From contig CAIIXF020000001.1 of assembly GCA_903813345.2 (NCBI GenBank), forward strand, positions 28,387,915 through 28,451,914: DNA of 64,000 nucleotides, in the 5' to 3' direction. Shown here one piece after another: positions 460-63,895 of this stretch (position 1 is its first letter; the number at the start of each line of letters is the position of its first letter). Position numbers and translations under genes: made by a program. The notes under the pieces are model-generated. The model ran no database searches. It was not told the DNA's origin and worked only from the letters and a program-made list of their open reading frames with translations. This DNA comes from Owenia fusiformis. Lineage: Eukaryota > Annelida > Polychaeta > Sabellida > Oweniidae.

Positions 460-15890
<15,431 letters not shown>

Positions 15891-23291: not shown

Positions 23292-25054
23292 CTAACATTG
23301 ATAATTTTCAGGAAAGCAGTTTGTATGCACAAAACATGAATATCTGATAAAAATATCTTCAATATTTTCATCTAGCATCTGTATCGTTGCATTGCCATCT
23401 GTGGAACTGTGTGCTTCATTGCTGTGACAAGATTTCAAATTTATTATATCATTCATTTCATTGGTGGTTTCATTTTCAATTTTATTTTCAATTTCATTTT
23501 CTTTTTCAATGTTATTATCCATTGTTGTACGACATTTCATTTCATTGTTACTGTCAATATCTAATTTTGAGCATTTAGATACATGGGGAACATCACTGTC
23601 CAAGGGTGTATTCCCATTTCGCCCCTTCCCATTTCGCCCCTCATTTATTCCCATTTCGCTCCTTTCCCATTTTGCCCCTTTGCCATTTCACCCCTTTCCC
23701 GTGTTGCCCCTTTCCCATATCGCCCCTTTCCCTTATCGCCCCTTCCCATTTCGCCCCTTCCCATGTAGCCCCTTCTCCATTTCACCCCTTCCCATTTCGC
23801 CCCTTCCCATCTCGCCCCTTCCCATTTCGCCCCTCATTTATTCCCATTTTGCCCCTTCCCAATTGGCCCCTTCCCATTTCGCCCCTTCACTTTTCGCCCC
23901 TTCCCAATTGGCCCCTTTCCCATTTTGCCCCTTTGCCTGATTTAAGGTCATTGGGACTCTTGTGAACCTCTGTGACCTATGATTAAGTGAACTAAGGTCA
24001 AGGTCATTGCAAGGTCAAGGGTCAGTATCTAGGTATTTTATTTTTTAATACCAAGGGGCGAAATGGGAATGAACGAGGGGCGAAATGGGAAAGGGGCCAA
24101 TTGGGAAAGGGCGAAATGGGAATAAATGAGGGGCGAAATGGTAAGGGGCAAAATGGGAAGGGGCCAATTGGGAAAGGGTGAATTGGGAAGGGGCGAAGGG
24201 GGAATGAGGGGCGAAATGGGAAGGGGGCATAATGGGACGGGGGCGAAATGGGAAAGGGGCAATTTGGGAAAGGGGCAAAATGGGAAGGGGTGAAATGGGA
24301 AGGGGCCAAATGGGAATAAATGAGGGGCAAAATGGGAAGGGGCAAAGTGGGAAGGGGCGAAATGGGAAGACAACCTGTCCAAGTACTGGGCTATTGATAT
24401 TGTCATGGAGTCCTGATCCCGAATCACTATTTTTTTGCCACTGGCTTCGATCTCACTGGGAATCACATCTGAGAAATTTTTTGTTATCAATTTAATCGTT
24501 CCATTCACATTAATAATTTTTCTGATTTTCATTTCATTTTCAGGATGTTTTAAAATCAAGTGTTGTATTATTGCATTAAATTGTTTTGTTTTCCCGTCAC
24601 AATGGTAGCATTGGAAGCCTACACACCTGAAAGTAAACAAGTGATTAATTAGACATCCATTCCACGTATTTTCCATATATTCTGTGGGAATCAGAGCCGC
24701 GTTTTTTCCAGAAAATAAATCTAATCTCGTCTCAGGGACGTAAATTACTTCTTGTATTAGAAAAATAATGGTGATATGACATTCCCTGGTTCATAAACTA
24801 TCATATCGCCAAATATCAATGCATTTGAAACAGAGTATCTACCATTTTTTCGAAAATAATCAAAAAAAAATATTGCGGTTATTTACAAAAATATATTATT
24901 TCAATTCGTATTCATTTCGTTTCTTAGTATTAATCGTTACAATATTATATATAGAGAGGTGGATATGTCTTGGATCAATGTACCGAGTTTGAACATGTCA
25001 GGTGGCCAAGAAAGGGTATAATTTAAAGAAATAAACTCACCCCTGCTCTGCCAT
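23292..25054 (-). pseudogene. Transposon-borne C2H2-like gene, split by a foldback insertion
   Basis: Exon 1 is 25054-25041 (ATG GCA GAG CAG GG|GTGAGT). Exon 2 begins at 24626 after TTACTTTCAG and reads GCVGFQCYHCDGKTKQFNAI, a C-x2-C finger half, followed by IIQHLILKHPENEM with two histidines at x4 spacing. The frame runs to QYLD at 24375, where a 771-bp element is inserted. The same frame resumes as DSDVPHVSKC at 23603 and runs to a stop at 23292. The insertion plus duplication (779 bp) shifts the frame, so the gene is broken here. Without it the product would be about 190 aa, with a charged N/E-rich tail. I do not recognise the family firmly. The ATG just inside the TIR says the gene belongs to the transposon. 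Confidence 0.7.
23604..24374. mobile_element. Foldback-type element built from inverted arrays of a 15-16-bp repeat
   Basis: The left arm (about 23610-23935) is a tandem array of CCCATTTCGCCCCTT. The right arm (about 24052-24368) is the same repeat inverted, AAGGGGCGAAATGGG. The arms are separated by about 110 bp of unique sequence. The whole is flanked by an 8-bp direct duplication CTGTCCAA (23596-23603 and 24375-24382). Removing it and one duplication restores a continuous reading frame in the host gene, which proves it is an insertion. Ends are GGGTGTATTCCC and, inverted, GTTGTCTTCCC. Confidence 0.85.
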
Positions 25055-28600: not shown

Positions 28601-31600
28601 CCAGAGTCTTTTTGCAAGGTTACCTGTTGACTTATGCAGCACTCCAAAATCAAAGTGTATTCCTTGCCTGCTATTTGCTTTTTTCTGTTTGCATGTCTGC
28701 AACAAATCTTTTTTTTCTCCAGGTCCAGTAGACAACAAACCTGGAGAGTCAGTAGGGGCACCAGACCATCCACATCGAGGTTTTGAAACTGTCACTTATG
28801 TTATAGATGGGGGTATTAAGCATAAGGATTCTGAAGGCAACAAAGGTAAAGGTTGTTTTTGTAGATTTATGAAGCTGGAAATGTTTCACTCACTACAGTA
28901 GATGGCATTTCATATTTGATGAAATTTCATTTCTTAACTGTTATGTCACCACCAGAACTTCTTTGTGGACGGTGTTCAGCGGTCTGTGGTTGGCAGTCAG
29001 CATCTGTAACAAATGGCAGGTGGTGACATTTTGCATGTTTATACCTACTAATGATATTTTTAGAGCCATCATTTTTTGTGACTGGCACTTTGGTGACAAT
29101 TTATTGTTGCTAACATTTTTTATTCATTTTTTTGTATTTTTTGAACTGAATTGATATTTTACATTTTATATTCCCTAAAAGTTGTGTTAAATTCAGAATG
29201 AGAGTTTTTTGTATCCAATATAAGCTTTACAAACATAGTGTGAAAACTCATTTGCAGCACCTCACTGCCTCAGTCTATTGACAAGCATAGATTGTGAACA
29301 CAGCCTAGACTTGCCTAAATACACAATTCTTCATGTAAAAGGAATGAAATCAAAACAAAAAATGATTTATCATACTGAACAATCAAAATAACGCGTAACC
29401 ATTATTAATGGATCACCCTGTATATTTTGTCCAGGTAATCTGAAGGAGGGTTGGGTGCAGTGGATGACTGCAGGGCGGGGAATTGTACATGCAGAGATGC
29501 CAACTGATGAAATCATGGAGAATGGGGGACGCATGGAAGGCTTCCAGTTGTGGACTAATTTACCAGCAAAGGTTAGTAGATGGACTAGTTTATTTAGTTG
29601 ATATTTCAGAAGCACATTCGAGAAATGGTCATATGACAGTGGATTACTCATGTCATGAGACAAGTGAAAATCCCTGCAGTGTACATGTATGTATTGGCAC
29701 ATGTGTATGCATCTGTTATGAAGGTTTAAATGCATTGAGATCAATTATAAAGGATCAAATTGGCTAAGAAAATGGGAGAATACATTGTATCAAAGAAATG
29801 CATCTAAAAAAGCGGCAATACCAGAAAGTAAGTGCAGTAAAACTTGTCTAAGTAGAACATCTTGGTACAATGTGATGGGAGGTGTTACATTGATAGAGGT
29901 TCATTAAACATTAAGTCAATTGGTCTTGGGACTCTAAAGTCTTCCACTAACAGAGGTGTTCCACTTCTAGATCTAGAGGTGTTCCCACTTTACAGGTTTC
30001 ACTGTAAGCTAATTTCTGACTTGAAACTAATGATTAGGGACCTACCCCCCCAGGGATGCCTTGGGGTCTATTTAATGATTGGACTAGACATGAGTCATAT
30101 CAAATCATGTTATTTCATTGTGTACACTTATTACACACATTTTTTAAGTGCTGTAACTTGTTCCGTGAGTGTAAAAATGAAACTAGACTGAGGCTGTGAT
30201 TTTCAGTTATCAGATTTGGTTCAGATTTTACATGCTTATATGTTTAGGACTCTGCTAAAAAGGGGTTTTCAGCATGGCTACTTTTTCACACATTGGGTAT
30301 AGGCTTTACCAACATGAGACAGTACTACTGCATGCATGCCTGGTTATTTTTTCAAAATGATGAGTAATTTGATAAAATACATGTATGTTTAGTTTGGTGG
30401 GATTTGCTACTCCTGGAAGTTGCTGTTTGTCAAGTTTTGAGAATTATATGTTGGCAACTTTTTTAATAGCTTTAGCCATGATCATTTTTAGGCTTAAAAT
30501 GGAACTGAAATGATATACCCATTGCTTGAACTAAGTTATCTTCTTTGGTATAGTGGTAGTGACACATCTGAGATGTCACTAAAACCTTGTTGAAAGTTGC
30601 CATCTATATGTCATCTTACTCATTTTGATTTGCAAAGATTCCTGCTCTCATTATCTTTTTTAGGAACATATGATCAGGAGAATAAAATATGAAGTCTTTA
30701 TTTCATATCTTACATATCAAACATCTTCTGTTCTTTCTATATTTACATGTTTGTCATATAATGTCTTCAGTCCTCATGTGAGATGAAGCTTGCAAATCAA
30801 CATCATATCCTAACTTACAGTCTCTATATCGTTACCATCTTTCTTTATTGAAATGAAGTTTTAAACTTGTAGAATTTTATTGTCAGATAAATGATGCACT
30901 TGTTACAAAATTGTTTATCTATTTTGAATAGTGAGGTTCAGAAAACAAAATAAATTATCCAAATATTTTCAGATCATTTTAGAATGAACTACATACTGTA
31001 TATTGACAACTGAACAATAAAAAAATAATGAGTTTCAAACCTTCATCAGTAAGGAGTGAGGATAAATAGTGGAAAGCTATGAACCTTTAGTACATGAGTA
31101 CAAAATGAACATGTAGTGTAAAATGGGTCCAAAACATTGTTTCATAATTGTCTTATATGTACTGTTACAGTATTCATGAATTGTTAGATCTCTAACATAG
31201 ACTTAAGTCTATCTATGTGTTCCAAATCAGGATGTGACTGTCCTTTCTGCAGTGTATTCAACATCTCAGTAGCTTTTGTTAAATTATGAATGACTGTCTC
31301 TGCATTTTCTTTCAATTCAAGTTGTGCTTCGGCCAAAAGAATGAATGATTCTACAATATCACCATGGTTGGCTTCATTGCCATATATTTGCCTTGCTGCG
31401 TCTAAAGCTAACTGATGGTATGCAATTGCTTCATTACTATTGTTTAGTATGCGTGACACTGTCCCAATTTTATTGTAGATTTTCCCCATGTCCAGGTAGG
31501 CTGATCTTTGTTCATCTGAAATATTCTCCAATTGCTTGAGTGATCGGTTGAGTTGAATTGAAGCCTCGGACAGGTCCCCTTTTAAAGCTAGTGCAGTTGC

Positions 31601-34600
31601 AAGAGCAGAGACAGACATAACAAGGTCGAGTGCTTCAAATGTATTAATATCAGCATATTCATTTCTGAGTTCTGTAGATTGGTGAAAGTAGTCCACAGCT
31701 TTAGAATAGTGGCCCTGTTTTAGATGAACAGTGCCAATATTGTAAAATATCCTAGCCTTTAGCAGATGAAAGGCAGAAAGTGGGGAATCAGTCATGCATT
31801 CTAGTGCTTTGTCATAGTTAATAAGAGCTGCATTGTAATCTCCATTGTTGTTGTAACTGTATCCCAGATTGTTGTATGAAGGGGACAGCAGTTTGAAGTG
31901 GTCTTTAATCTGCATTGGAGAGGCAAGTGTTATTTCTATTGCTTCTTTGAAGTACTCTATGGCTTGTTCATTTTCATATGCTTTGAGGTATGCAAACCCA
32001 ATGAGATTCAAATAGTCTGCTTCTGCAGCCATATCATCCTTGATGTTGTTAATTCTTTTGAGATGCTTGTGCATATCATAGCTCTCAATTGCCATTTGTT
32101 TACCCCTTTGAATGTTCCCCATTTGCAGGTACACATGTGCCAGTAGATAAAGGTTTTCTTTGATGACAACATTTGGAACATTACCAAACATTCTGTATCT
32201 CATCATCAAAGCTTTTTGTAGGTATTTTAAACCAGTTTTTGAGTCTTTCTTTTCACCAGCAATACTATTTCCTAAATTGTTATAGGCTACGGCCAATGTA
32301 GTGCTGTCTTTTCCTTCCATAACACCTATTGCTTTCTGATTGAGTTCTATAGATTTATCAAGATTTCCCATTCCTTTGTAAGAGTAGGCAAGTGATAGAA
32401 GAAGGACACCAAGGTCCATTGGATATAAGTCAATGTTATCAAGTATTTCCTGAAAAAGTCTATGGGCTTTTTCATAATCACCATGTCTCCAAAGATTAGC
32501 ACGTCCAAGTTGAAACTTCAATTGAAGGATAAATGATATGTCCACATTGTTTTTCTCAGCTAATTCAATTGCACTTTCACAAATTGAACATGCTTTTTCA
32601 TTTTCATACCTTGAGCAATACACAGCAGAGAGATAAGACAGTGCAAGCACATCATTTGGTGTTTCTTCCAGCACTTTTTCAAAGCATGCTATAGCATCTG
32701 TATATCTAAGCAGCCGCATATTAACAGTACCTTCATTCATTGCATTGTCCTCAAAACAGTTTCCCTTCACTTTGTTTGTCAGTGTAAATGTTCTCATGAT
32801 TGTTTCCAATGGTATAGCTGATTTATAGTACCTTGTTATAATATCTGTATTGTCCATGTAAAATGTAGCAGCGTCATCAGTCATGGAAGCTCCTGCTTCA
32901 GCAGTTGATTTGAACCTTTCTCTAACTGCGATGTTGTCACGCTGTGCTTTAATTGTACAATATGTTTGTAGTCTTAGTTGGTTGCCTATTGCCCATAGGA
33001 CCATTAGGTTGTGTGCAATATCTCTTGATAATACCCCCATGGACTCCAGTTCAGATATGATCTCCCATGGAGGCTTGCTCACTACCCCAAAGTACATCCC
33101 AAGGTTCATAATCATTAAGCTTGGGAATCTGAAAATTTCCCTCTTCACATGGAATATACTCCCCTCACTTCTTACTCCCAGAAAAGGTGTTCCATATTTC
33201 ACATTGTCCTCTTTTATTGTCTTAATTGCCCTCTTTTGTCCAGTGTTGCCAATCTTTAATGATTTCTTCAATTGGATGATGTAATCATCGTACAAGGTCT
33301 TATCTCCCATTATGAATGTTGCTGAGGTGAGCACTTCTGCCAAACCATCGGGGCCAAATGAGTTAAGGTTCTGTATGTTCGCCATCTTTGATGGGGTCTG
33401 GATAAGTTCATTTCCCCCCAGACCTCTCGGAAACTTACATGCTTTTGGCATATCAGCATCAAATGAGAATCCTCGTGGTGTAATTGAATCAAAGAACCAG
33501 TTTTCTCCACCTTCGGAATAGTCATTTAGAGACTTAACACCCATTGCTGGAACTATTGTCTCTCCAAGGTTAATGACTTTGAGTTCGAAGAAGTCACATA
33601 AAGCAGCGAGTTTTGCTTTATTTTGTGGTGTATCTGAACCCTCTCCAATGAGAGCAGCGAATTCAATATCAGAGTATGGCGTCATCTCATGACGTGAGAA
33701 TGAACCAAGGCCAATAAAAGCCCATGGGAAGGTCATTGGTTTCATATTTTTCAAACAATCATTCACCATTTTTTGTATCATTGACTTCATTCTTTCAACG
33801 AGTGTAGTTGCGATACATATAACCTTTTTAGTATGTTCAGACTCAGCAGTGATTCTCTCAGTTATTGATATACCAGCTTTAGCATCATAAGGTCCAGTTT
33901 CGCTTATATCATTAAGCATTTTCTCTGTGTTTGTTCTTATTTCATCAAGCGTTGATTTATAGATCTGTGTTTCCTCTTCTGAATAATCATTAGATCCATC
34001 TTTTAAATTTCCCAAGAGTTCCAACATAACACATTCAATGTTTGCGATTTTTGTTGTCAAAACATTCACCTGTAAATCATCTGAGTTCAGCCTTACTTTT
34101 GCGCCATTATACAGAGCACATGCTTTCAACAGGCAGACTCTATCGTTTTGATGTTTTGCATATTCCAAATAGACATCTCCTAGGGCTTCAAGACATATAC
34201 ATGTCTCTTTCTTATCACTGGCAAGTTTTAATGCGAGCGCATATTCTTCTTCAGCCTTCTTGAATCTGTTCTGGTCATATTCTCTTTGACCTCTTGCATA
34301 GCGATCAGCAAATGTCAGTCTGAAATGTCAATGAATTTTTTATTATTTCCAGAAATATTTTCAGAGGAGCAATATTCTTTTTTCCAACAAAAACTATCAT
34401 TATAATAAAACTTTGATTTTTGTTTTATCTTGCAAAGTTTCCCTTTATATGTAACTTATATTGGTAAATTGAACTCATAATTGATATCAGCCCCCTTAAT
34501 GCAGTGATTCAGGCATCAGCCACTCTGGAAAGAATGTTGATGTCTGAAGCAGTGTATTCTTAGGATGGGATATACCATCCTATTGGTTTCATTCCCCAAT

Positions 34601-37600
34601 CTCAAGACGACCAAATAGAGATGCATCAACGTTTCAGTTGGGTTGTGTGTCAGTGAAACTTTTTGATTGAGCAATTAGAATACCACAATATCACATGGAA
34701 AAATACATCATACAAAAGAGTATCTTGGATGGCTTGCAGTTTGGCTAATAAAATGTGTGGCCTCTTGTATTTTGATGCTTTTCTGACATGTAGTTTTCAA
34801 AAGAATTAACCCATACGATAGTGAACTGTTGTCTTTTGTTTGATTTTTTAGGTTTTATTGACACACAGCTCCATTGAAATGGACTATAGTTTATTAATTG
34901 TATTATAAACAATTCACTTTCAGTTTAAGGTACAGCTGGAAAATAACATTTTGGTAAAAAATTGCTATACCTGCACATGTTATTTTCTGGTACACTATAA
35001 AGTATGAAGGCATGTGTTAATTTCCTTGTTTTTTCAGGAAAGTATCATTACATTGTCTTTTTTTAGTATATCTGTAGACTATATATCCTCTAGTCTGAAA
35101 TTTTTTTGAATTTTTGAATGAAATTATTCAGACTATAGCCTACATATGTTAAAATTTGTCATTGAAAATTATTTGTTTACATAGGAAGTGCCATTCAAAA
35201 TGGCCGACTGGGTAAATTAATTTGCATATTTGTTACTTCCCCTAGCTTTATTTCCATTTGACAATATGCTGGGTTACTTTTTATAGCATTTAATTGTACC
35301 TTACTACTTAATTGAATTGTTATAATGCTTATTTTTGGGAAGTGAAGTTCCCTAAAATTGATTATAGTTTGCAGGAAATGTCCTGTTTTTTTTACCACAG
35401 GAGGGACATAATGATTAATAGACTGAATTCTCAGGAAATTCAGTCTATTGGATATAGACTAAGTATATCTGGTAAGAGGTCGATGGGAACTCCAGGAAAT
35501 TCTGATATTTCACATTTTCTAGTTTTCCAAATTTTCTTTCAAAGTTTCCAGACAACACAGGAGCTACCATTGACCTGTTTCCAGGTTTACTAAAAGTAGA
35601 CAATGTAATGATACTTTCCTGAAAAAGGCAAGGGAATATACACAATGCCTCCATACTAAATTTTGTACCAGAAAATAACATGTGCAGGTATTGCAATTTT
35701 TTACCAAAATGTTACTTTCCAGCTGAACCTTAAAATTGACTGGAATATGATTTATAGATATATAAAATACCACATACCCTTGCTGCAAGAATGCTATAAC
35801 CTGTAACTTTACTTTACATGTATGATAAAGTATTGTACATGTTTATACTGTACTTACACATCCATCTTTGTGCCTTCACTAACTGTGTCACTTCTGACTC
35901 TAAGAATATCTTCCTTTATGTCAACTTCTGCTCCTGCAGTCAAATGTATCAGTGTCCGCAATTTATTCCCCATTTCTCTTCGTGAATTTTATGAATCACA
36001 GTCAAAAGTCCCTGGAGAACATTGGATCTATAAAACTTCATGACTAGAAGCTTCTCGATCTTGAATCTGCACAAAACTGATTGTATTGGTTGTGTATAGC
36101 AGTATTGAAGCTGTAGTAGTTGAATCGTATGCCTGCTCTATTTATATATGTGAATAATAAAGTTGAATGTTTGTAAATGGATTATTTTACAGTTCAATAG
36201 AGTCATATTACTGCAAGTGTTTACTGTTTTCTATGTGACCTGTTTAGTACACCAGGATGTCATTCTGCATGTCATCTTGGCTATTTCATGTTTTTCAGGG
36301 CCCAGTTGTTCAGAACCACTATTAACTTAATTGCAATTAACTTAATTTTTGGTCTAATTGCAATTACGTAGTTAATTTCAATATTAAATTCTGTTGTTGA
36401 AAGCATTTTAATTTCGAAATTAACTAATTGTTCACTATTAAGCTAATAGTGGTTCTGAACAACTGGGCTCAGCACAAAAGTACTGTCCTCGCATTTTTAA
36501 AAAAAAATTCTTGGTGATTCAGTGACAGCATTTTGGTCTTTTATGTTTCAGAAATTCTAAATCTTTTAATATTGATCTCTGACTGAGCCTTTGATTTAAA
36601 ATCACTTGTTTTGAAGGAATATGTCTCATTATTGCTATTTCATATGTATGAGTATATGTCTATAGTTCGTCAAGCGGATAACTGCAAGTTTGATCATCAT
36701 GGCCAATAATGTGGTAAGTCCGCCGGAGCAGATCAACTGCAATTGATAATAAAAACGTTTTGCTGGATATAAATCCTATATAAATACAAGCGACTGTAAC
36801 GTATTTTGTTAAGTTCAGACGGCTTGATGACAATAAGGCCTTCTTTATTTGAAGCTTAATACCATATGATTTTTCAATGTTTTTTATTATGTAATTTATT
36901 TGCTAAGCATATCATGACATTAACATGAACATGGAGAGCAAGTAAACTGGAACGATAACAATTTGAATTCTATACAATCTCCAAGATGAGTGGAGTAAAT
37001 TTGAAAAAACAAAATCGTTTTTGCAATGATTGATTTTTCTTTGAAAAAGTGATGGGTAATAAATACTGAACAAATGAAAGAATGAATAAATTTGAACAAA
37101 TATGCTTGTGTTTATAAATGATATACGCTTTTAAATAATTCATTTCACAACGTTTTTAATTATTTAACACAATTAGTTTCGGGGACTTCCCAGCCCCAGG
37201 GACGTCCCAATAAATATTTTAAATTTTTATTGAAATAAAACAAAATAGAGATGTACACATTTGAAAGAACATGTGTTTTATCAATATTACGACGATTCCA
37301 GATATTTATTCGTCAATGTTGTAAAAATCATTCGGACGTCTGCATTGTTTACAATAACTTTCAATAACTTTGTATTGGACCAGAACTGGCTTAAAAAATC
37401 CCACAAAGGACTGATTTAGCCATTGCCTAAGATGGGTTATTTTGTCCGAGAAGAATCAGCTTTTAAGTTTATTGTGCGAAATTATTGTTATTTCTAAATG
37501 TAAAATCTCATGCTCTGGGGTCTTCCGACAATTAAATCTCATCCCGTGCCTAAGGTTGCCAAACGTTTTGAGGGAAGTGTAACTTCATGATGACATGTTT

Positions 37601-40600
37601 TTAACAAAATAAGCCTCTCGTGTTCACCATAACAAATATCAATTCATTTACTGCTCATATATGTAGTTTTCAAATAGCACAGTAATTTAATGTTTCTGGT
37701 TGAGGCATTTTTCCGCAAAATGATATTTTGGAAAATCCTGACCGGGGGTTCGTTCGAACCCACCGAACCCCCGCTGCCTACGGCTATGCTTATGAATATA
37801 CTTAGTTTTCACTCAACTGCTTGAAACTTGAAATAATGAAATTGATGGGGCAATGCATTTAATCTAAAAGTAACCATGCAATATGTTGAAGGATTTAAGC
37901 CCTGGACTCAGTGCGATGCGGAATGACCATTCTCTGAAGGTTGCTTTCCAAAGTATCAGCTTCAATGTGTAGAGTCCAGTCATCACCATGACAACCGTTT
38001 AACTAGTGACCTTGAGTTCGATATTGGTTATATAACAGAATGCAGTTACATGAAATAGCGTGTTCTGATTGGCTGGTTTTGGACACACCTTGCCTAATTA
38101 ACTGTGTGAATGTAATTTTAAGAATGCAGATTATTTGAAATACCATGTTGTGATTGACTGGAATTTGATCATTGAGTTTTATTATCCCATTGAACGAAGT
38201 TCGGAGGGATATAGGGAACGCCTCCGTCCGTCCGTCCGTACGTCCGTCCGTCTGTACGTACGTCCGTCCGTCTGTCCGTCCGTCCGGGCAATAACTCAAA
38301 TACCGTTGGCCCGATTTTGTTCATATTTTGTACACATATACCCTATGGGAGTAGAAGTTCTGCTCGAAAGCTGATTTTCAAAATGGCCGCTCATTTCAAA
38401 ATGGCGGCCATTTTAGTGCTGATTTTACAGTAATTTAGGTGCAATATGTAAAACTGTAATAGCAATATGTTTTAAATGTAAAAAAATTATAAAGGATATA
38501 AATAATGCTACAAATGTAGATATTAAAGAAGCACATGGCAGCCATCTTGAAAAATGGCGGCCTTTAATCGTCATTTTACGATTTTTGCTGTAACTCAAAA
38601 AATAGTGGAGCGATTTTGTTCATATTTGGTATGTGAATACTGTAAGCATTGCACACTGCCTAAAGACACTTTTGGTAGAAGGCGGCCATTTTGAAATTTT
38701 TTTTGAAAAATGGCCGCCATTTTAAAGTATTTTACTATAACTCGAAAAGTAGTGGAGCGATTTTGTTCATATTTGGTATGTGAATACTATAAGCATGGCA
38801 CACTGTCCTATGACACTTTTGGTAGAAGGCGGCCATTTTGAAAAAAAATTTGAAAAATGGCCGCCATTTTAACGTATTTTACTATAACTCGAAAAGTAGT
38901 GGAGCGATTTTGTTCATATTTGGTATGTGAATACTATAAGCATGGCACACTGTCTATTTCTAATGACACTTTTGGTAGAAGGTGGCCATTTTGAAAAATG
39001 GCCGCCATTTTAACATATTTTCTATAACCAGAAAAGTAGTGGAGAGATTTTGTTCATATTTGATATGTGAATACTTTAAGCATGGCACATTGTCTAATAA
39101 AACTTTTGGGAGTTGTCGGCAATTTTGAAAAATGGCCACCATTTTTATGTGTGTTATTTTACAAGTACGTGTGTGATTTTTCAAAAATTTTAGAGGTGGC
39201 TTCTTAAAAGCATATTATTTCTTCTGATGACAACTTGGCAAGTAAGCAACCATTTTGAAAATGGTGGCCTTTCTGGTGTGTTGTTTTATGATATATGCTA
39301 TTCGTTTGTAAAAATGCCAGCCATTTCTGTTCGATGGGATTCGCTACGCTTTGGCGTTGCCGTTGTTCTGGTTTTCGTTAATGCTATGCTAAATATAACT
39401 TATTGTTTTCCAGCATAAAATGATTGCTCCACGCTATCAAGAAATGAAACCAGAAGAAATGGCATCAGTAGAAAATGAAGAAAATAAATATACTGTCAAA
39501 ATTATATCTGGCACAGTAAATGGTTAGTAATGAAATTTTCCAATAAAATAATTGTACTTTTTATTTATTTTTTATTTTTGAGATTTGATGCCTCATATAC
39601 ATTATGGTTAAAAAGTGTCTTGTTATTATCTATAAACTATATGTCACCACAGCATCAGGTGTCTCTGACAAATTGTTCCACTTGTAATTGCAACAAATAA
39701 GTGATACTTTGCCATTTTAATGTCTTATTCCAAATTCAAACAGCATCTTTATATTTACAGGTGTGTCTTCAAAAATCAACACATTAGTACCAATCACATT
39801 CCTAGATATTCATCTCCAGCCTGGTGGCCAGTTCACACACGACATACCTCCTGGTTTTAACAGTATTGCATATGTATGGAGAGGCTCAGGTAAATAGTAA
39901 CATGACATACATCCTAGATTTAACAGTATTGCATATGTATGGAGAGGCTCAGGTAAATAGTAACATGACATACATCCTAGCTTTAACAGTATTGCATATG
40001 TATGGAGAGGTTCAGGTAAATAGTAACATGACATACATCCTAGCTTTAACAGTATTGCATATGTATGGAGAGGCTCAGGTAAATAGTAACATGACATACA
40101 TCCTGGCTTTAACAGTATTGCATATGTATGGAGAGGCTCAGGTAAATAGTAACATGACATACATCCTGGCTTTAACAGAATTGCATATGCATGGAGAGGC
40201 TCAGGTAAATAGTAACATGACATACATCCTGGCTTTAACAGTATTGCATATGCATGGAGAGGCTCAGGTAAATAGTAACATGACATACATCCTGGCTTTA
40301 ACAGTATTGCATATGTATGGAGAGGTTCAGGTAAATAGTAACATGACATACATCCTAGCTTTAACAGTATTGCATATGTATGGAGAGGCTCAGGTAAATA
40401 GTAACATGACATACATCCTGGCTTTAACAGTATTGCATATGCATGGAGAGGCTCAGGTAAATAGTAACATGACATACATCCTGGCTTTAACAGTATTGCA
40501 TATGCATGGAGAGGCTCAGGTAAATAGTAACATGACATACATCCTGGCTTTAACAGTATTGCATATGCATGGAGAGGCTCAGGTAAATAGTAACATGACA

Positions 40601-43600
40601 TACATCCTGGCTTTAACAGTATTGCATATGCATGGAGAGGCTCAGGTAAATAGTAACATGACATACATCCTAGCTTTAACAGTATTGCATATGCATGGAG
40701 AGGCTCAGGTAAATAGTAACATGATATACATCCTGGCTTTAACAGTATTGCATATGCATGGAGAGGCTCAGGTAAATAGTAACATGACATACATCCTAGC
40801 TTTAACAGTATTGCATATGCATGGAGAGGCTCAGGTAAATAGTAACATGATATACATCCTGGCTTTAACAGTATTGCATATGCATGGAGAGGCTCAGGTA
40901 AATAGTAACATGATATACATCCTAGCTTTAACAGTATTGCATATGCATGGAGAGGCTCAGGTAAATAGTAACATGACATACATCCTGGCTTTAACAGTAT
41001 TGCATATGTATGGAGAGGTTCAGGTAAATAGTAACATGACATACATCCTAGCTTTAACAGTATTGCATATGTATGGAGAGGCTCAGGTAAATAGTAACAT
41101 GACATACATCCTGGCTTTAACAGTATTGCATATGCATGGAGAGGCTCAGGTAAATAGTAACATGACATACATCCTGGCTTTAACAGTATTGCATATGCAT
41201 GGAGAGGCTCAGGTAAATAGTAACATGACATACATCCTGGCTTTAACAGTATTGCATATGCATGGAGAGGCTCAGGTAAATAGTAACATGATATACATCC
41301 TGGCTTTAACAGTATTGCATATGCATGGAGAGGCTCAGGTAAATAGTAACATGATATACATCCTGGCTTTAACAGTATTGCATATGTATGGAGAGGTTCA
41401 GGTAAATAGTAACATGACATACATCCTAGCTTTAACAGTATTGCATATGTATGGAGAGGCTCAGGTAAATAGTAACATGACATACATCCTGGCTTTAACA
41501 GTATTGCATATGTATGGAGAGGCTCAGGTAAATAGTAACATGACATACATCCTGGCTTTAACAGTATTGCATATGTATGGAGAGGTTCAGGTAAATAGTA
41601 ACATGAGATACATCCTGGCTTTAACAGTATTGCATATGTATGGAGAGGCTCAGGTAAATAGTAACATGACATACATCCTGGCTTTAACAGTATTGCATAT
41701 GCATGGAGAGGCTCAGGTAAATAGTAACATGATATACATCCTGGCTTTAACAGTATTGCATATGTATGGAGAGGCTCAGGTAAATAGTAACATGACATAC
41801 ATCCTGGCTTTAACAGTATTGCATATGTATGGAGAGGCTCAGGTAAATAGTAACATGACATACATCCTGGCTTTAACAGTATTGCATATGTATGGAGAGG
41901 TTCAGGTAAATAGTAACATGAGATACATCCTGGCTTTAACAGTATTGCATATGTATGGAGAGGCTCATGTAAATAGTAACATGACATACCTCCTGGCTTT
42001 AACAGTATTGCATATGCATGGAGAGGCTCAGGTAAATAGTAACATGACATACAATCTGGCTTTAACAGTATTGCATATGCATGGAGAGGCTCAGGTAAAT
42101 AGTAACATGACATACATCCTGGCTTTAACAGTATTGCATATGCATGGAGAGGCTCAGGTAAATAGTAACATGACATACATCCTAGCTTTAACAGTATTGC
42201 ATATGTATGGAGAGGCTCAGGTAAATAGTAACATGACATACATCCTGGCTTTAACAGTATTGCATATGCATGGAGAGGCTCAGGTAAATAGTAACATGAC
42301 ATACATCCTAGCTTTAACAGTATTGCATATGTATGGAGAGGTTCAGGTAAATAGTAACATGTCATACATTCTGCCTTAATAGTAACTTGACATACCTTCA
42401 GATTATTCGCTATTGAAATTAAAATACAATCAATTTAATCAAACTAGTTCAAGGCAAAATTAATGTTGAATGCTATTTTGCCTGTTGATAATATCAGGCA
42501 ATACCTTTATACTTGCAGGTGTTTTAGGTTCAATGCCTGCTCATATGGGGCAAGTGGGGCTGCTTAGTGAAAAGGGAACTGCATTTACAATGAAGGCAAC
42601 AGATCAAGGTGAGAAAGTTTGGTGTTCTTTCATGAAATTTGTATAAGACCAGCCTTCCAAAATTGGTCAAAGACCTATGTACTGTATTATGAAAGCTCTA
42701 CGATATAGAGCTTCAAGGACAGCTGCAAATTGAATGGCCACTTATGGACTCAAAGACCATTGATAGAATTGAACACTCAATAACTACTGGTAGATTCAAG
42801 GACCATTGAGACTGTCAACAAGAAATACTGCTAGAGTCAAAAGACAATTGATGTACTCGTGAAGTACTGGTACTGTAGATATAAATACTGGTAGATTTAA
42901 AGACCACTAATACACTCAATGACCACTGAGAGACTTATTGAATTGAATGTACATGATTGTATAAGAATACAAATTGTATATTGAAAACTTTATGGTCATC
43001 CCTCATACACCAAAAATATTCACTATTAGGAAATAGAAAAGAATTTTGGACAAAAACACCAGATAATGACTGAAATTGTTGAACACCCAATAAATCCCTC
43101 CTTTAACTGTGTTTTAGATTGCCATATTCTACTGATTGCTGGTGAAATTATTAATGAACCAATTGTGAAGTATGGACCATTTGTGATGAATACACAAGCT
43201 GAAATTGATCAGGTAGATGTCATATGGTTTGTTAAACTAAAATGAAACAGCAGGAGGGGGGGTAATCAATGTACTAGTGTAATGGTTATAGTTTCAGTAA
43301 CTTTTGGAATACTTTCATAACGGGTGCAGTTTTTTTTTTTTTCGTGACATAATATTTCGATCAAATTCTACTTACACACACTCACTCACACTCACACAGA
43401 TGTGTGATGTCATTGATTCAAAGTAGCCATGGGAATAAACCGTATTTAATACATCGGTTATGTCACTACAACATGAAATATGCCTTCGTTCTTGCCCAAA
43501 TATAGAGCCTCCAAAGGTCGGCCTATATTGGCAGAACTCAGGCATATATCACATAGTGTCATAACCTCTAAGAATTAATGGCATTAAAATCTGTTGATAA

Positions 43601-43742
43601 AAAGTACTGACATTGGGTATTATTGTAGGCTGTAGCAGACTATCAAGCAGGACTACTAGGGTCTATTCCTGGCAAGGAGGAAAGACTTCAACAGACAGAG
43701 ATTGCACTGGCACGACAGAGAGAATCTGGTACATGGACCTAG
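25651..43742 (+). CDS. PIR: Pirin, 8 coding exons
   Basis: Fe-binding bicupin-fold nuclear protein; in animals a transcription co-regulator, with quercetinase activity reported for the family. Exons: 25651-25783 (exon opens at 25607), 28723-28845, 29435-29571, 39414-39522, 39761-39889, 42519-42608, 43118-43212, 43629-43742. Total 930 nt, 309 aa (human 290). Metal ligands are visible: [10 protein letters not shown] supplies two His, and [12 protein letters not shown] supplies His and Glu. The C-terminal cupin shows [20 protein letters not shown]. The frame is open from the acceptor at 25607 to ATG 25651, so translation could begin in an unseen upstream exon. Intron 3 (9.8 kb) contains another gene on the minus strand. 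Intron 5 starts with a 63-bp minisatellite made from exon 5's own end. Confidence 0.93.
26665..27405. repeat. About 740-bp imperfect palindrome in PIR intron 1
   Basis: The outer arms share AAAGGACTGGTATCGATATG (left, near 26675) with its near-complement CATATCGATACCACTCCTTT (right, near 27385), then TCTCTTAAACCA against TGGTTTAAGAGA. Inner arms of about 110 bp (26900-27015 and 27070-27185) include CAACATGTTTGTAGACCTCTC against its complement. The centre is near 27040. It looks like a foldback or hairpin DNA element. Confidence 0.6.
27560..28215. repeat. Degraded tandem repeat, about 4-5 units of 130-145 bp
   Basis: Recurrent blocks: GTAAATGTTAAGGTGGCCAT, TTTCCATCCTTAAATC, GATGAACCATTCGATTGATT, ATGAAAATATCGAACTG. 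Identity between units is moderate. No coding signal. Confidence 0.5.
28935..29045. repeat. TGTCACCAC-family repeat, opposite orientation
   Basis: TTATGTCACCACCAGAAC, CTTTGTGGACGGTGTTC, GGTTGGCAG, ATCTGTAACAAATGGCAGGTG and GTGACATTTTGCATG appear in the reverse order of the POLR1A-intron copies. It lies in PIR intron 2. Confidence 0.6.
29572..31183. other. PIR intron 3, part upstream of the nested gene
   Basis: Contains a degraded copy (29838-30010) of the GTAAAACTTGTCTAAGTAGAA / GGTGTTCCACTT repeat also present at 47487-47662. Otherwise AT-rich; no coding exon seen. It probably includes the 3' UTR of the minus-strand gene ending at 31184. Confidence 0.5.
31184..35973 (-). CDS. Nucleotidyltransferase-TPR protein, 1,083 aa, nested in PIR intron 3
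   Basis: Exon 1 is 35973-35858 (ATG GGG AAT AAA..., donor GT|GTAAGT). Exon 2 is 34319-31184, entered after ACATTTCAG and uninterrupted for 3.1 kb. Together 3252 nt, in frame. The reading frame is open through a TTG at 34168, so the protein does not start there. Residues about 242-259 read [18 protein letters not shown], the G-S...D-x-E signature of a GlnD/DUF294-like nucleotidyltransferase. From about residue 570 to the end come roughly a dozen TPRs of the nephrocystin/kinesin-light-chain type (for example [47 protein letters not shown]). Similar NTase-plus-TPR proteins are known as uncharacterised expansions in aquatic invertebrates. Substrate and role are unknown. The TPR array suggests a scaffold or sensor. 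Confidence 0.85.
34921..35740. repeat. Foldback element in the intron of the NTase-TPR gene
   Basis: The left arm, about 34921-35075 (TTAAGGTACAGCTGGAAAAT, CCTGCACATGTTATTTTCTG, AGGAAAGTATCATTACATTG), is complementary to the right arm, about 35590-35740, in matching order. The loop of about 515 bp contains a further small palindrome (near 35420-35460, ATTCAGTCTATT). Confidence 0.65.
36137..36150 (-). promoter_or_regulatory. TATA-box candidate for the NTase-TPR gene
   Basis: On the minus strand the sequence reads CATATATAAATAG, a good TATA element, about 170 bp upstream of ATG 35973. Spacing would give a 5' UTR of roughly 130-140 nt. No other core motif was checked. Confidence 0.4.
36300..36468. 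repeat. 169-bp MITE with 25-bp perfect terminal inverted repeats
   Basis: GCCCAGTTGTTCAGAACCAC... at 36300-36324 is exactly complementary to 36444-36468. The interior is AT-rich with TTAATTGCAATTA blocks. Flanking TCAG on both sides may be a 3-4-bp target duplication. Confidence 0.75.
36469..38200. other. PIR intron 3, no gene seen
   Basis: AT-rich, with no coding exon and no clear repeat structure recognised apart from short inverted segments. It lies upstream of the TATA candidate of the nested gene. Confidence 0.4.
38200..39190. repeat. (TCCG)n-bearing element with a ~145-bp tandem array
   Basis: Begins with GGGATATAGGGAACGCC then a CCGTCCGTCCGTACGT-type microsatellite (38221-38287). Units containing GATTTTGTTCATATTTGG recur near 38302 (divergent), 38609, 38758, 38906 and 39047. 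Each unit holds a GGCGGCCATTTTGAAAAATGG-type hairpin. Confidence 0.75.
39845..42410 (+). repeat. 63-bp minisatellite, 40 copies, seeded by the end of PIR exon 5 and its splice donor
   Basis: The unit runs TTTAACAGTATTGCATATG, TATGGAGAGGCTCAG, GTAAATAGTAACATGACATA, CATCCTGGC. The first copy overlaps the 3' end of PIR exon 5 (donor at 39890). GTAAAT recurs every 63 bp through 42347, which is 39 further copies without a net indel. Common variants are TATG/CATG before GAG, GGCTCAG/GGTTCAG, and GACATA/GATATA/GAGATA. One copy (near 41967) reads TCATGTAAAT, weakening its donor. Because 63 is a multiple of three, long spurious open frames exist on both strands. Confidence 0.97.
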
Positions 43743-45121
43743 TTAAAACTTCTACATATCATTCTCGATAATCTGTGGTCTTATGTGAGAAACTGAGCAA
43801 TTGTGAAATGCTCGACATTCCGTTGTGTAACAATCTGTCGTAAAATCCCAGGTTGAAAAGAAAAATATGCATTGGATTCACGTTAACGCGTTATGTAGTT
43901 ATCAAATTTTATGTGGTGGTGTGTCATCTACAAATTTTGTTATGTCACATATCAAAAAGTGACTTATTGTTATCCCTCTCAGTTTTGTGCCTGGCTCCAG
44001 CAGTTGGTATCTGTAACATATTGTTACACTTTAGTAACTTTTTGTAACTATAGCCTTATCGTTTCTTGTTTTACAATTAATGTCTCATATCAGATGACAA
44101 GTATCATGTACAGTATTTGGATTGCACGATCTGTCTCTACTATACACTTTATTGTATATCATTGAATTTGCCTTTAATATATATGTGGCTTCAGGAATAT
44201 GATCAGAATCAAAAGGTATGTGTTTGTGCCTAAGTATATACTCTTTACATATTTCATATTTATTCCTAATAAGAAGATCTGTGTATTTATTCAAGATTTT
44301 AGCCAATACTCTCTTTACTATAATATATTATGTACAATATCAATACTATATATCAGTACTTAAATTACAGACCACTGGTACATATTATTTAAGAATTGTT
44401 ATATGGGATCAAGTACTAGATGTTTGAAAATCACATCCAGTGGACAAATAACTGAATTATGGATAACCAATGTCCTGATAAAATGTGTTTCATGGGAGAT
44501 GACACCTCAAAATGGAACAATTGATCTCATTTTTGAATTAGTCATTGACTCCTGGATTCTCTTCAAGCAAAGCTCTAATACTGTATTGTACTGTGGTTCA
44601 TCAGTTGCTTATTTTAGCAAAAAACGATGCAGTTGAATGAAAGTAAAGAGGAATGTAGCCTACTGACTAAAGAAGAATGGTATACATGTTCAATAACATG
44701 TACCAGTAATATAACTGACACTTAGTTATATATACCAGTTTTGTTACATGTATATGTTTAGATGTATGTTGAACTTCCAAATATGGAGAATGTAACATTT
44801 ACACCAGAAATACTCATATTATAATAAATGCACCGTATCTTACCATGGGCTTTGAAAGTCAATGATCTTACATAGTTTTATGCATGGCCTTTCAATAGAC
44901 CAATAGAGTTCATCAAAGTGGAATGTCAATGTAAATGTATCTGTTATATAGATGGAAATCTTTGTATTTTGAACATCTCTATGGAAATCTTATCAATTAG
45001 TGCTAAGTGGATATTTTGTTTTTGTTATATAATGTGAAAACAGTGTCAAAATGGAGGTTTTTGTGCTGTTTTTGGAATCTCATAATTTGTAAGATTTGTT
45101 GTGTATATTTGTTTTACTGTC

Positions 45122-51597: not shown

Positions 51598-52382
51598 TTA
51601 AGTTTCTCCCTTATGTTAAGGGAAACTATTTACAGCCTTCAATCAGTTTGTCTTGGACCACTATTCTTAGAACATACTGAGTATCTTTATCCAAGAATTT
51701 ATTGTTTTTAAAAAAAAGAATTAGCCCAATCAAATAATGTTGAGACAATTCAATGAAGTTTCTCCCTTATGTTGAGGTAAAATGTTTACAGCCTTCTATC
51801 AGTTTGTCTTGGACCACTATTCTTAGAACATACTGAGTATCTTTATCCAAGAATTTATTGTTTTTAAAAAAAAGAATTAGCCCAATCAAATAATGTTGAG
51901 ACAATTCAATGAAGTTTCTCCCTTATGTTGAGGTAAAATGTTTACAGCCTTCTATCAGTTTGTCTTGGACCACTATTCTTAGAACATACTGAGTATCTTT
52001 ATCCAAGAATTTATTGTTTTTAAAAAAAGAATTAGCCCAATCAAATAATGTTGAGACAATTCAATGAAGTTTCGCCCTTATGTTGAGGTAAAATGTTTAC
52101 AGCCTTCTATCAGTTTGTCTTGGACCACTATTCTTAGAACATACTGAGTATCTTTATCCAAGAATTTATTGTTTTTAGAAAAAGAATTAGCCCAATCAAA
52201 TAATGTTGAGACAATTCAATGAAGTTTCTCCCTTATGTTGAGGTAAAATATTTACAGCCTTCGATCAGTTTGTCTTGGACCACTATTCTTAGAACATACT
52301 GAGTATCTTTATCCAAGAATTTATTGTTTTTAAAAAAAGAATTAGCCCAATCAAATAATGTTGAGACAATTCAATGAAGTAC
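51598..52382. repeat. ~155-bp tandem repeat, 5 copies
   Basis: GAAGTTTCTCCCTTATGTTG recurs at about 51599 (divergent), 51754, 51909, 52065 (TTCGCCC variant) and 52219. Units are more than 95% alike apart from the first and end ...AATAATGTTGAGACAATTCA. The length of an A-run varies between units. Confidence 0.9.
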
Positions 52383-62266: not shown

Positions 62267-62628
62267 GTGAGTATTTTTATCTCCGAAGATTTTGCTGTTT
62301 TCTTACTACCTTTCCCACTTTTGCATGAAATAAAATGTAAGATGGTGTAATGACATATCATGCACACGACTGTCATATTTTTTCTTGCTATTCAATCTAT
62401 GTAATAAGAGAAATCAATTGTTTTATCCACGAATTTTTTCCCTCCAGATTTCCGAACTCGATCCAACATGATTTTTTCAATCCCCCATCGAAATCCAGTG
62501 CCATCCGTTCGAACTGACATCTCATTCGTTACAACAATTATTTCATCTTACAGCTTCTTATTTTTATAGTTGTTCATATTTCGTCTTCGTGTTAAAAATG
62601 AGAAACTATTGAATAAATTAGTCAGGAA
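62267..62628. other. Sequence between the putative divergent exon and the LINE
   Basis: AT-rich; would be intron 1 of the divergent gene. Nothing else recognised. Confidence 0.4.
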
Positions 62629-63704
62629 AAAGTGGAAACCGAACTTAGCAACTTAAAAAGCCACAAAGCAGCCGGCCCAGATGGGATACAAGCAAGGGTC
62701 CTCAAGGAAGCTGCCAAGGAGCTAGCTTCTCCACTTGCCATACTGTACACTAAATGTATGGAACAGGGTGAACTACCACGGGACTGGAAGGATGCAGTAG
62801 TGACACCTATCTTTAAGAAAGGAAGGAAGTCATCCCCAGCTAACTACCGCCCAGTCAGTTTAACATGCATTGCATGTAAGATTATGGAAACACTGGTGAG
62901 AGCAGACCTGTTGGACCATTTGGTGTCAAACAACATTTTGTCAGATGATCAACATGGATTTTCCCCCTCCCGTTCATGTTGTACACAATTGTTGACAGTA
63001 CTAGAGGACTGGACAAGTATACTTGATAGAGGAGATCAAGTGGACTGCATATATTTTGACTTTAGCAAGGCGTTTGACTCCGTGCCACATAACAGAATGC
63101 TAGAGAAGCTGGAAAAACTTGGAATTGATGGGAATCTACTGGCCTGGTTAAAGGCGTTTGTACTAGGCAGGAGGCAAAGAGTTCGGATCAATAATAAACT
63201 GTCCGATTGGAAGCCAGTATCCAGTGGTATACCCGAAGGCTCCGTGCTCGGGCCGATGATATTCATACTATATATAAACGACCTCCCAGAGACAGTACAT
63301 AACACTATCAAGATGTTTGCAGACGACACCAAAGTGTATGCCACCGTTAACTGCAACGAAGATGCCAAGAAGTTACAGGAGGATGTTGACAGTCTCATGA
63401 AATGGTCGGCTAGGTGGCTGCTCAAATTCAACGAAAATAAATGCAAAACCATGCATCTGGGAAACAAGAATATTAATAAAGATTACTACATGAATGACAC
63501 TAAAATAGAAAATGTTAACGAGGAGAAAGATCTTGGAGTCATAATAGACAAAGAACTGAACTTCCATAAACAAGTATCCATGTGTGTTAATAAAGCAAAT
63601 CAGATCCTAGGAGCAATGAAGCACACACTCACATACAGAGATAGTGACATATTCATAAAGCTCTACAAGACCTTAGTTAGACCCCACCTAGAATATAACA
63701 ATGA
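62629..63704 (+). mobile_element. Truncated non-LTR retrotransposon reverse transcriptase (CR1/Jockey type)
   Basis: About 358 codons of reverse transcriptase: SHKAAGPDGI, NYRPVSLT, QHGFSPSRSC, YFDFSKAFDSVPH, GIPEGSVLGPMIF, the catalytic MFADDTKVY with the FADD box, then KDLGVIIDKEL and RPHLEYNN. The frame enters without a start codon (GTG at 62632), so endonuclease and 5' parts are missing. It is open throughout the RT domain, suggesting fairly recent insertion. RT similarity stops after RPHLEYNND, where a small inverted-repeat element begins. The apparent extension of the frame to 63819 is that element, not RT. Confidence 0.9.
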
Positions 63705-63706
63705 CC

Positions 63707-63895
63707 CCTGTTACACAGGCCAGTTGAAATGCTTCGTTACGAAGCAATTTGACAAAAAGCTTCGTAACGAAGCAATTTTGGGCCAGTGTAACACCTCCGC
63801 CTTCGTTAGAAAAGCTTAGTTGATAACGAAGCAATTGAGTAGAAAATTCAACGAAGGTTAGGTCCCAACGAAGCTTTTTTGGCCTGTGTAACAGG
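63707..63895. repeat. 189-bp inverted-repeat element truncating the RT
   Basis: CCTGTTACACAGGCC (63707-63721) and its perfect complement (63881-63895). The interior is full of GCTTCGTTACGAAGC-type palindromes, and GCCAGTGTAACACC near 63783 is a degenerate internal end. After it the RT does not resume; GCTTCGTTAG continues at 63898, so the element may be longer or tandem. Confidence 0.7.

What the first reader, a model, noticed from the sequence alone, without database searches (positions are those of the whole stretch)
39845..42410. Forty in-register splice donors: a minisatellite made from a PIR exon end
The 3' end of PIR exon 5 together with its 5' splice site (GGCTCAG|GTAAAT) is the seed of a 63-bp tandem array. 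The real donor is at 39890, and GTAAAT recurs every 63 bp to 42347, giving 40 donors. Each unit also carries TTTAACAG, an acceptor-like AG, just 26 bp before the donor, so each could act as a micro-exon. Read past the first donor, the PIR frame meets TAG at once, so using any later donor truncates the protein. The spliceosome must therefore choose the first of 40 near-identical donors, or the locus makes a graded mix of truncated transcripts.
Basis: seen in the sequence. Interest (0 to 1): 0.88.

Follow-up and report, generated by a model that had tools for sequence, protein, structure and literature searches.

The report
Splice-site minisatellite in pirin gene
In what looks like an animal genome, the end of one exon of the pirin gene and the splice signal after it have been copied about forty times in a row, a kind of repeat already described in lancelets ("mirages"), and the same genome holds more arrays of this kind that could show how the splicing machinery picks one site among many near-identical ones.

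Summary
A 63-bp unit, the last ~50 nt of a pirin (PIR) exon plus ~13 nt of intron, is repeated in exact register: 40 GTAAAT at 39890-42347, 39 of them CAG|GTAAAT, one CAT|GTAAAT. The genome search found it only here. The array is 95% of the intron. Each of the 39 later donors gives the same truncation...RGSGK*. Homology (GSGV) points to donor 1 as the functional one.

It is not a new kind. Repeats spanning exon-intron boundaries are known from amphioxus as "mirages", reported not to disturb splicing (PMC3087553, PMC3902484, passages); human IFI6 has a minisatellite supplying several donors.

What I add: it is not alone here. Donor-motif arrays at 62-65 bp spacing number 21 against 10 for a reversed-motif control (3.0 times per motif), and 11 of 21 have coding evidence just before the first donor against 5 of 39 single motif sites. 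A second donor motif showed no excess. Most likely the first donor is used by default. The micro-exon idea is weak. No RNA was available; the organism is not identified.

The parts
39761..39889 (+). PIR coding exon (129 nt) whose last ~50 nt are copy 1 of the array
   Evidence: open frame in a 7-exon join that reads as pirin; Pfam Pirin_C of the joined reading; PDB pirins
39890..39895 (+). functional 5' splice site, donor 1 (CAG|GTAAAT)
   Evidence: sequence; junction gives GSGV as in the bacterial pirin 2p17; U1 duplex -8.3 kcal/mol, the five other PIR donors -6.8 to -9.6
39837..42384 (+). 63-bp tandem array, 40 copies in register; 95% of the intron
   Evidence: TRF 40.5 copies, 97%; 17 unit types in 40 copies; share of intron
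39953..42352 (+). 39 downstream donor copies at 63-bp steps (38 CAG|GTAAAT; copy 34 at 41969 is CAT|GTAAAT)
40188..42272 (+). 20 TGCATG motifs, from a derived T>C at position -15 in 20 of 40 copies, none in the exon copy
42360..42399 (+). degenerate copy 41 (35-bp deletion, donor lost) and start of a 42nd copy; GACATACCT at 42389 also at 39841 in the exon
   Evidence: alignment, direct repeat
42519..42608 (+). next PIR coding exon; acceptor TTGCAG ends at 42518, outside the array
   Evidence: frame and homology
28723..43743 (+). PIR gene, seven coding exons found (28723-28845, 29435-29571, 39414-39522, 39761-39889, 42519-42608, 43118-43212, 43629-43743); N-terminal exon(s) not found

Best explanation
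A mirage-type minisatellite. A 63-bp segment straddling the exon end and its 5' splice site was tandemly duplicated, possibly by slippage between two short direct repeats (GACATACCT lies at both edges), and expanded by unequal exchange to 40-odd copies (the anatomy is shown; the process is inferred). Because each unit holds the whole tail of the exon and the donor, an in-register gain or loss of units leaves one exon end plus donor, so the array is tolerated (inferred). The first donor is used by default: it makes a 129-nt exon, whereas donors 2, 3 and 4 would make 192, 255 and 318 nt, and every later donor truncates the protein and would probably be removed by NMD (lengths and truncation shown; choice and NMD inferred).
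For: Exact register and copy number; single locus found; junction homology; identical truncation 39 of 39 and exon lengths; the exon copy differs more from the rest (6.8%) than they do from each other (3.0%), and a five-unit block recurs 11 units apart (4 of 2000 shuffles reach that length), as unequal exchange would leave; GACATACCT at both edges. Precedents: amphioxus Adh3, globin, TnC and PGBD5 boundary repeats reported or suggested not to disturb splicing (PMC3087553 and PMC3902484, passages); [quoted passage not shown] Other arrays here: 14 of 18 that I judged by eye to abut an exon would give a stop or frameshift at donor 2.
Against: No RNA was seen. Array donors pair with U1 as well as the real ones do, so sequence alone does not single out donor 1. 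From general knowledge (recalled), when two equal donors compete the intron-proximal one is often preferred, which would favour later copies. In IFI6 later donors are used. The edge repeat GACATACCT could be a decayed copy rather than the seed; it also occurs once in copy 35 and once at 1763. The codon-usage score missed the PIR array donor itself (2.8, below the 95% null limit of 6.3).
Confidence: 0.74

Rival explanations
1. Dosage switch: a steady share of transcripts uses later donors, is truncated and decays, so that copy number tunes PIR level.
For: 38 of 39 downstream donors intact with U1 energy equal to the real one; all give the same premature stop, 240 nt or more before the last junction (distances printed for 6 of the 39).
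Against: Copies are only 3% diverged, so intact donors need no selection; published mirages are reported to splice normally.
Confidence: 0.12
2. Half of the copies carry UGCAUG, the RBFOX motif, which silences downstream donors or boosts use of donor 1; the array is a splicing-factor platform.
For: TGCATG in 20 of 39 downstream copies, none in the exon copy; TGCATG placed between competing donors suppressed the intron-proximal one in reporters (PMC1877881, passage).
Against: All 20 sit at the same position and differ from the exon by one substitution, so array turnover alone can have spread them; the first motif lies about 300 nt after donor 1; RBFOX was not tested here.
Confidence: 0.07
3. 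Each unit is a 26-nt micro-exon or decoy exon.
For: AG 26 nt before the donor in 40 of 40 copies; TAGTAAC 41 times; pyrimidine content of the 4 unit acceptors checked near that of real acceptors.
Against: 37-nt introns between neighbours; one, two, four or five micro-exons end in stops.
Confidence: 0.04
4. Assembly artefact: true array much shorter.
For: No raw reads could be checked.
Against: 17 unit types in a non-periodic order, decayed end copies, similar arrays at other loci.
Confidence: 0.03

Closest known systems
Mirages of amphioxus (Adh3, globins BflGb6 and BflGb9, TnC, PGBD5); PMC3087553 and PMC3902484, passages; the original Adh3 paper is not held
   Same: minisatellite-like tandem duplication of an exon-intron boundary with splice signals in many copies; Adh3 units 10-72 bp; cluster edges escape homogenisation; both 5' and 3' boundaries
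   Different: 40 copies at 97% in perfect register here; BflGb6 has 3 or 6 units of 150-160 bp; this genome is not shown to be a lancelet
Human IFI6 (6-16, G1P3) minisatellite giving multiple splice donors (Turri, Cuin and Porter 1995; title seen in reference lists only, paper not held; three mRNAs stated in a passage of PMC4526556)
   Same: tandem unit at an exon end supplies repeated donors
   Different: in IFI6 two downstream donors are used and give other isoforms (longer ones, as I recall); here the read-through meets a stop at once
Internal tandem repeats at exon-intron boundaries of human segmental-duplication genes (PMC2812944, abstract and passages); related: 'introns from tandem arrays' in human (Zhuo et al. 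2007, title seen in a reference list only)
   Same: minisatellites at boundaries, linked to altered splicing, found by genome-scale screens
   Different: units of 30 bp repeated 4 times on average, in recent paralogues; novel introns reported
Intron gain by tandem duplication (PMC4974935, abstract)
   Same: tandem duplication across an intron-exon boundary
   Different: here the acceptor that fits the protein lies outside the array, so no array-born intron is seen

Membership tests
mirage minisatellite | tandem repeat whose unit spans an exon-intron boundary | tested here: met
mirage minisatellite | edge copy is the genuine gene boundary | tested here: met
   homology across the junction, full frame
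mirage minisatellite | cluster edges escape homogenisation | tested here: met
   exon copy 6.8% from the rest, rest 3.0% among themselves; decayed distal copies
mirage minisatellite | regular splicing not disturbed | not testable with these tools
   no RNA data
mirage minisatellite | length or somatic instability | not testable with these tools
   one assembly, no reads
mirage minisatellite | described so far in cephalochordates (in the papers I saw) | tested here: inconclusive
   GFP family, 16 genes in B. floridae (PMC2679011, start of abstract in the listing), gave no match, but no control rang; no COX1 found
IFI6-type multiple-donor minisatellite | extended exon stays open and in frame | tested here: not met
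   TAG right after donor 1, same stop for donors 2-40
intron born by tandem duplication | both ends of the intron lie in the duplicated copies | tested here: not met
   acceptor at 42518 is outside the array; but the second pirin gene lacks this intron, so the age of the intron is open

The most novel reading that the evidence does not exclude
Working 5' splice sites are preferred birth places of minisatellites in this genome: tandem duplication nucleates on exon end plus donor more often than on other sequence, perhaps because of transcription- or U1-linked DNA damage or slippage, giving a genome-wide set of genes with tens of in-register donors, of which only the first is read. If the organism is not a lancelet, mirages are then not a cephalochordate peculiarity.
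Probability: 0.25. Interest if true: 0.78.

Novelty: new member of a known kind. Interest (0 to 1): 0.55.

Why it matters
Splice-site choice is usually tested with a few engineered sites. Here nature offers about forty nearly identical donors in one intron, with the protein surviving only if the first is taken, and other genes of the same genome show the same layout. That makes rules such as exon definition and donor competition directly measurable from RNA of one organism, and it tests whether functional splice sites seed minisatellites and new introns.

Tried and rejected
Intron gain: rejected as a description of this locus, because the acceptor is outside the array. Selection on donors: not claimed, because 3% divergence leaves too few changes. 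Frame constraint: not supported; of 18 exon-abutting arrays judged by eye (18 of the 27 shown), 4 have periods divisible by 3 and stay open as far as donor 2, and 14 give a stop or frameshift there (its 'next donors' column is faulty and unused). Acceptor-side arrays: the search filled its list of 100 by contig C5 and had no single-motif count, so no rate was taken; one clear case (L014) was kept as a passing note.

Results against the wider claim. AGGTAAAT triples, the motif of this very array, are not enriched (408 hits against 422; hits are not arrays). Of the six AGGTRAGT arrays first listed on C1, two had a Pfam match below 0.01 at the first-copy exon (Muted, Rieske_4), a tetraspanin match was 0.058, and one of six passed the codon score, in a frame other than the one I read by eye. 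Control arrays also lie near genes: by eye three are repeats in coding sequence between LRR-like and transmembrane stretches (L042, L047, L048), and several have long open stretches beside them (L041, L043, L046); they were not put through the coding test used for the 21. The 3.0-fold figure rests on one reversed motif, and many of the 21 have true periods of 20-37 bp, of which 62-65 is a multiple. The codon score was trained on about 5 kb of this window, the null on 206 AGGT sites of the same window, and it can pick a wrong frame (L073: score in one frame, Pfam match in another).

Taxon: COX1, GFP and hemerythrin searches found nothing (for GFP no control rang); a literature guess gave nothing useful.

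Selections and drops. Of the arrays listed besides PIR I fetched 4 of 10; all six listed. Exon evidence in the 21 arrays is a codon score above the null 95% limit (10: L020, L021, L022, L023, L025, L026, L027, L028, L030, L037) or Pfam E below 0.01 (8: L020, L022, L025, L026, L027, L028, L030, L038), union 11. Four of the eight reach no Pfam curated cut-off (L022, L025 and L030 below it; L025's EzrA and RdgC are probably coil matches); the count of four in this sentence should read three. For the 39 singles: four by score (L051, L073, L079, L087), four by Pfam (L051, L070, L073, L079), union five; I first counted six by assuming that unassigned Pfam matches lay in other loci, and corrected this. 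L051 is a reverse transcriptase. Fisher p: union 0.002, Pfam alone 0.017, Pfam without L025 0.039. One of 40 fetched singles (L049) was cut wrongly and dropped before counting.
Full report
The observation. The window holds 40 GTAAAT at exact 63-bp steps from 39890 to 42347; TRF gives 39837-42384, 40.5 copies, 97% matches, 0% indels. In 39 of 40 the donor is CAG|GTAAAT; copy 34 is CAT|GTAAAT. The unit is the last ~50 nt of an exon plus ~13 nt of intron. A whole-genome DNA search (498 Mb, 525 contigs) finds the unit only here, 40 matches. The array makes up 95% of the intron.

The gene. The reading of the surrounding exons matches Pfam Pirin_C (E 3.1e-24) and human and bacterial pirins. Seven coding exons from 28723 to 43743 join into one open frame of 264 codons plus stop; N-terminal exon(s) upstream were not found, so 'exon 5' is unproven. 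Joined at donor 1, the protein reads ...YVWRGSGVLG..., and the bacterial pirin 2p17 has GSGVFG at the same place, so donor 1 is the one that makes pirin. A second pirin gene on another chromosome-size contig (C2) reads through this position without an intron.

What other donors would do. Donors 2 to 40 all give ...YVWRGSGK* at the same codon; the exon would grow to 192, 255, 318 nt and so on, to 2586 nt. For donor 2 the stop lies 240 nt before the last exon junction, further for the later donors printed, so NMD is expected (inference). Of one to six 26-nt micro-exons tried, only three and six restore the frame, and neighbours would leave 37-nt introns.

Strength of the signals. Pairing with the U1 5' end (letters recalled) gives -8.3 kcal/mol for 39 copies and -1.7 for copy 34; the five other PIR donors range from -6.8 to -9.6. 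So sequence alone does not mark donor 1. The AG of each unit has a pyrimidine share of 0.56-0.69 in the copies checked (4 of 40), against 0.50-0.81 in the seven real acceptors.

History. Forty copies fall into 17 unit types. Downstream copies differ by 3.0% on average, the exon copy by 6.8% from them. The exon codes Pro at a place where human and bacterial pirins also have Pro; 37 of 39 copies code His there, one Pro, one Gln, so the copies come from the exon. A five-unit block recurs 11 units later; 4 of 2000 shuffles reach that length. After the last donor come a 41st copy that lost its donor by a 35-bp deletion and the start of a 42nd; GACATACCT stands at both edges, which would fit slippage between short direct repeats (inference).

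A derived change creates TGCATG in 20 of 40 copies and not in the exon copy. In published reporters TGCATG between competing donors suppressed the intron-proximal one (PMC1877881, passage). This is a lead only.

Not alone in this genome. Three AGGTRAGT at 40-70 bp gaps: 1264 hits against 579 for the motif read backwards; the same with AGGTAAAT: 408 against 422, no excess. At the level of arrays, spacing 62-65 bp: 21 arrays for AGGTRAGT, 10 for the reversed motif (grouped by hand from lists of 67 and 78 hits that were not capped), while single motifs number 33,163 and 47,644: 3.0 times per motif, one-sided binomial p 0.002. In 11 of 21 the stretch just before the first donor has coding evidence (codon score above the null 95% limit, or Pfam E below 0.01) against 5 of 39 single AGGTRAGT sites, Fisher p 0.002. 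By Pfam alone it is 8 of 21 against 4 of 39, p 0.017, or p 0.039 without the doubtful L025. Pfam matches in the 21 include a ligand-gated channel domain, enoyl-CoA hydratase, calpain, AAA helicase, Caprin and kinase and TMEM120. Among the arrays first listed, the BLOC-1 'Muted' family (52 bp x 33) and a Rieske domain (38 bp x 21) are clear, and a zinc-transporter exon abuts a 48-bp array. One case (L014) has the mirror layout at an acceptor.

Comparison with what is known. Only after this did the literature settle the filing: amphioxus 'mirages' are minisatellite-like duplications of exon-intron boundaries, with AG/GT signals in many copies, reported not to disturb splicing, and unstable in length (PMC3087553, passages; PMC3902484, passage). 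The original Adh3 paper is not held. Human IFI6 is the closest single-gene case with several donors in use (PMC4526556, passage; original not held). Genome-scale screens for boundary repeats exist for human segmental-duplication genes (PMC2812944, abstract and passages), and 'introns from tandem arrays' in human is a title I saw in a reference list. I therefore file the PIR array as a new member of the mirage kind. In the listings of my searches (several of them capped) I saw no paper that uses the name outside lancelets or that counts donor-seeded arrays over a whole genome against a control; that is a statement about those listings and this library only.

Verdict. What raises it above a curiosity is the set of similar loci. 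The claim that donors seed arrays preferentially is suggestive, not proven: one control motif, small counts, a coarse codon score, and no enrichment with AGGTAAAT. That the genome is an animal's is my inference from its genes.

Noticed in passing
window 31184-34327 (-): A 1047-aa stop-to-stop frame with TPR repeats and a weak DUF294 match lies antisense inside the 9.8-kb PIR intron.
   Followed up: partly
L007 (G000:C2:35377600-35387500): A second pirin gene without the intron that holds the array.
   Followed up: partly
L014 (G000:C1:27694000-27696700): Mirror case: a 53-bp array of about five copies of an acceptor plus exon start, before an exon with a weak UCH match (E 0.18), on the minus strand.
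   Followed up: partly
L008, L011 and L027: Exon-end arrays with 54-, 33- and 63-bp units whose read-through stays open and in frame for four periods, so that IFI6-like longer proteins are conceivable.
   Followed up: partly
L042, L047, L048: Repeat arrays in apparent coding sequence between LRR-like stretches and a transmembrane tail, judged by eye.
   Followed up: no
window 23611-24368: Two facing 15-bp-period arrays, (TTCCCATTTCGCCCC)n and its near reverse complement, about 140 bp apart.
   Followed up: no
window 51600-52380: 155-bp unit repeated 5 times at 98% with GAGGTAAAAT in the unit; not checked for an exon.
   Followed up: no
window 62617-63819 (+): Reverse-transcriptase frame of 400 aa (RVT_1).
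   Followed up: no
window 9467-9805 (-): Exon of an RNA polymerase large subunit (RNA_pol_Rpb1_2).
   Followed up: no
G000:C4:4219065-4224273 (-): A roughly 5-kb stretch of ~32-bp units with TTTGCAG.
   Followed up: no
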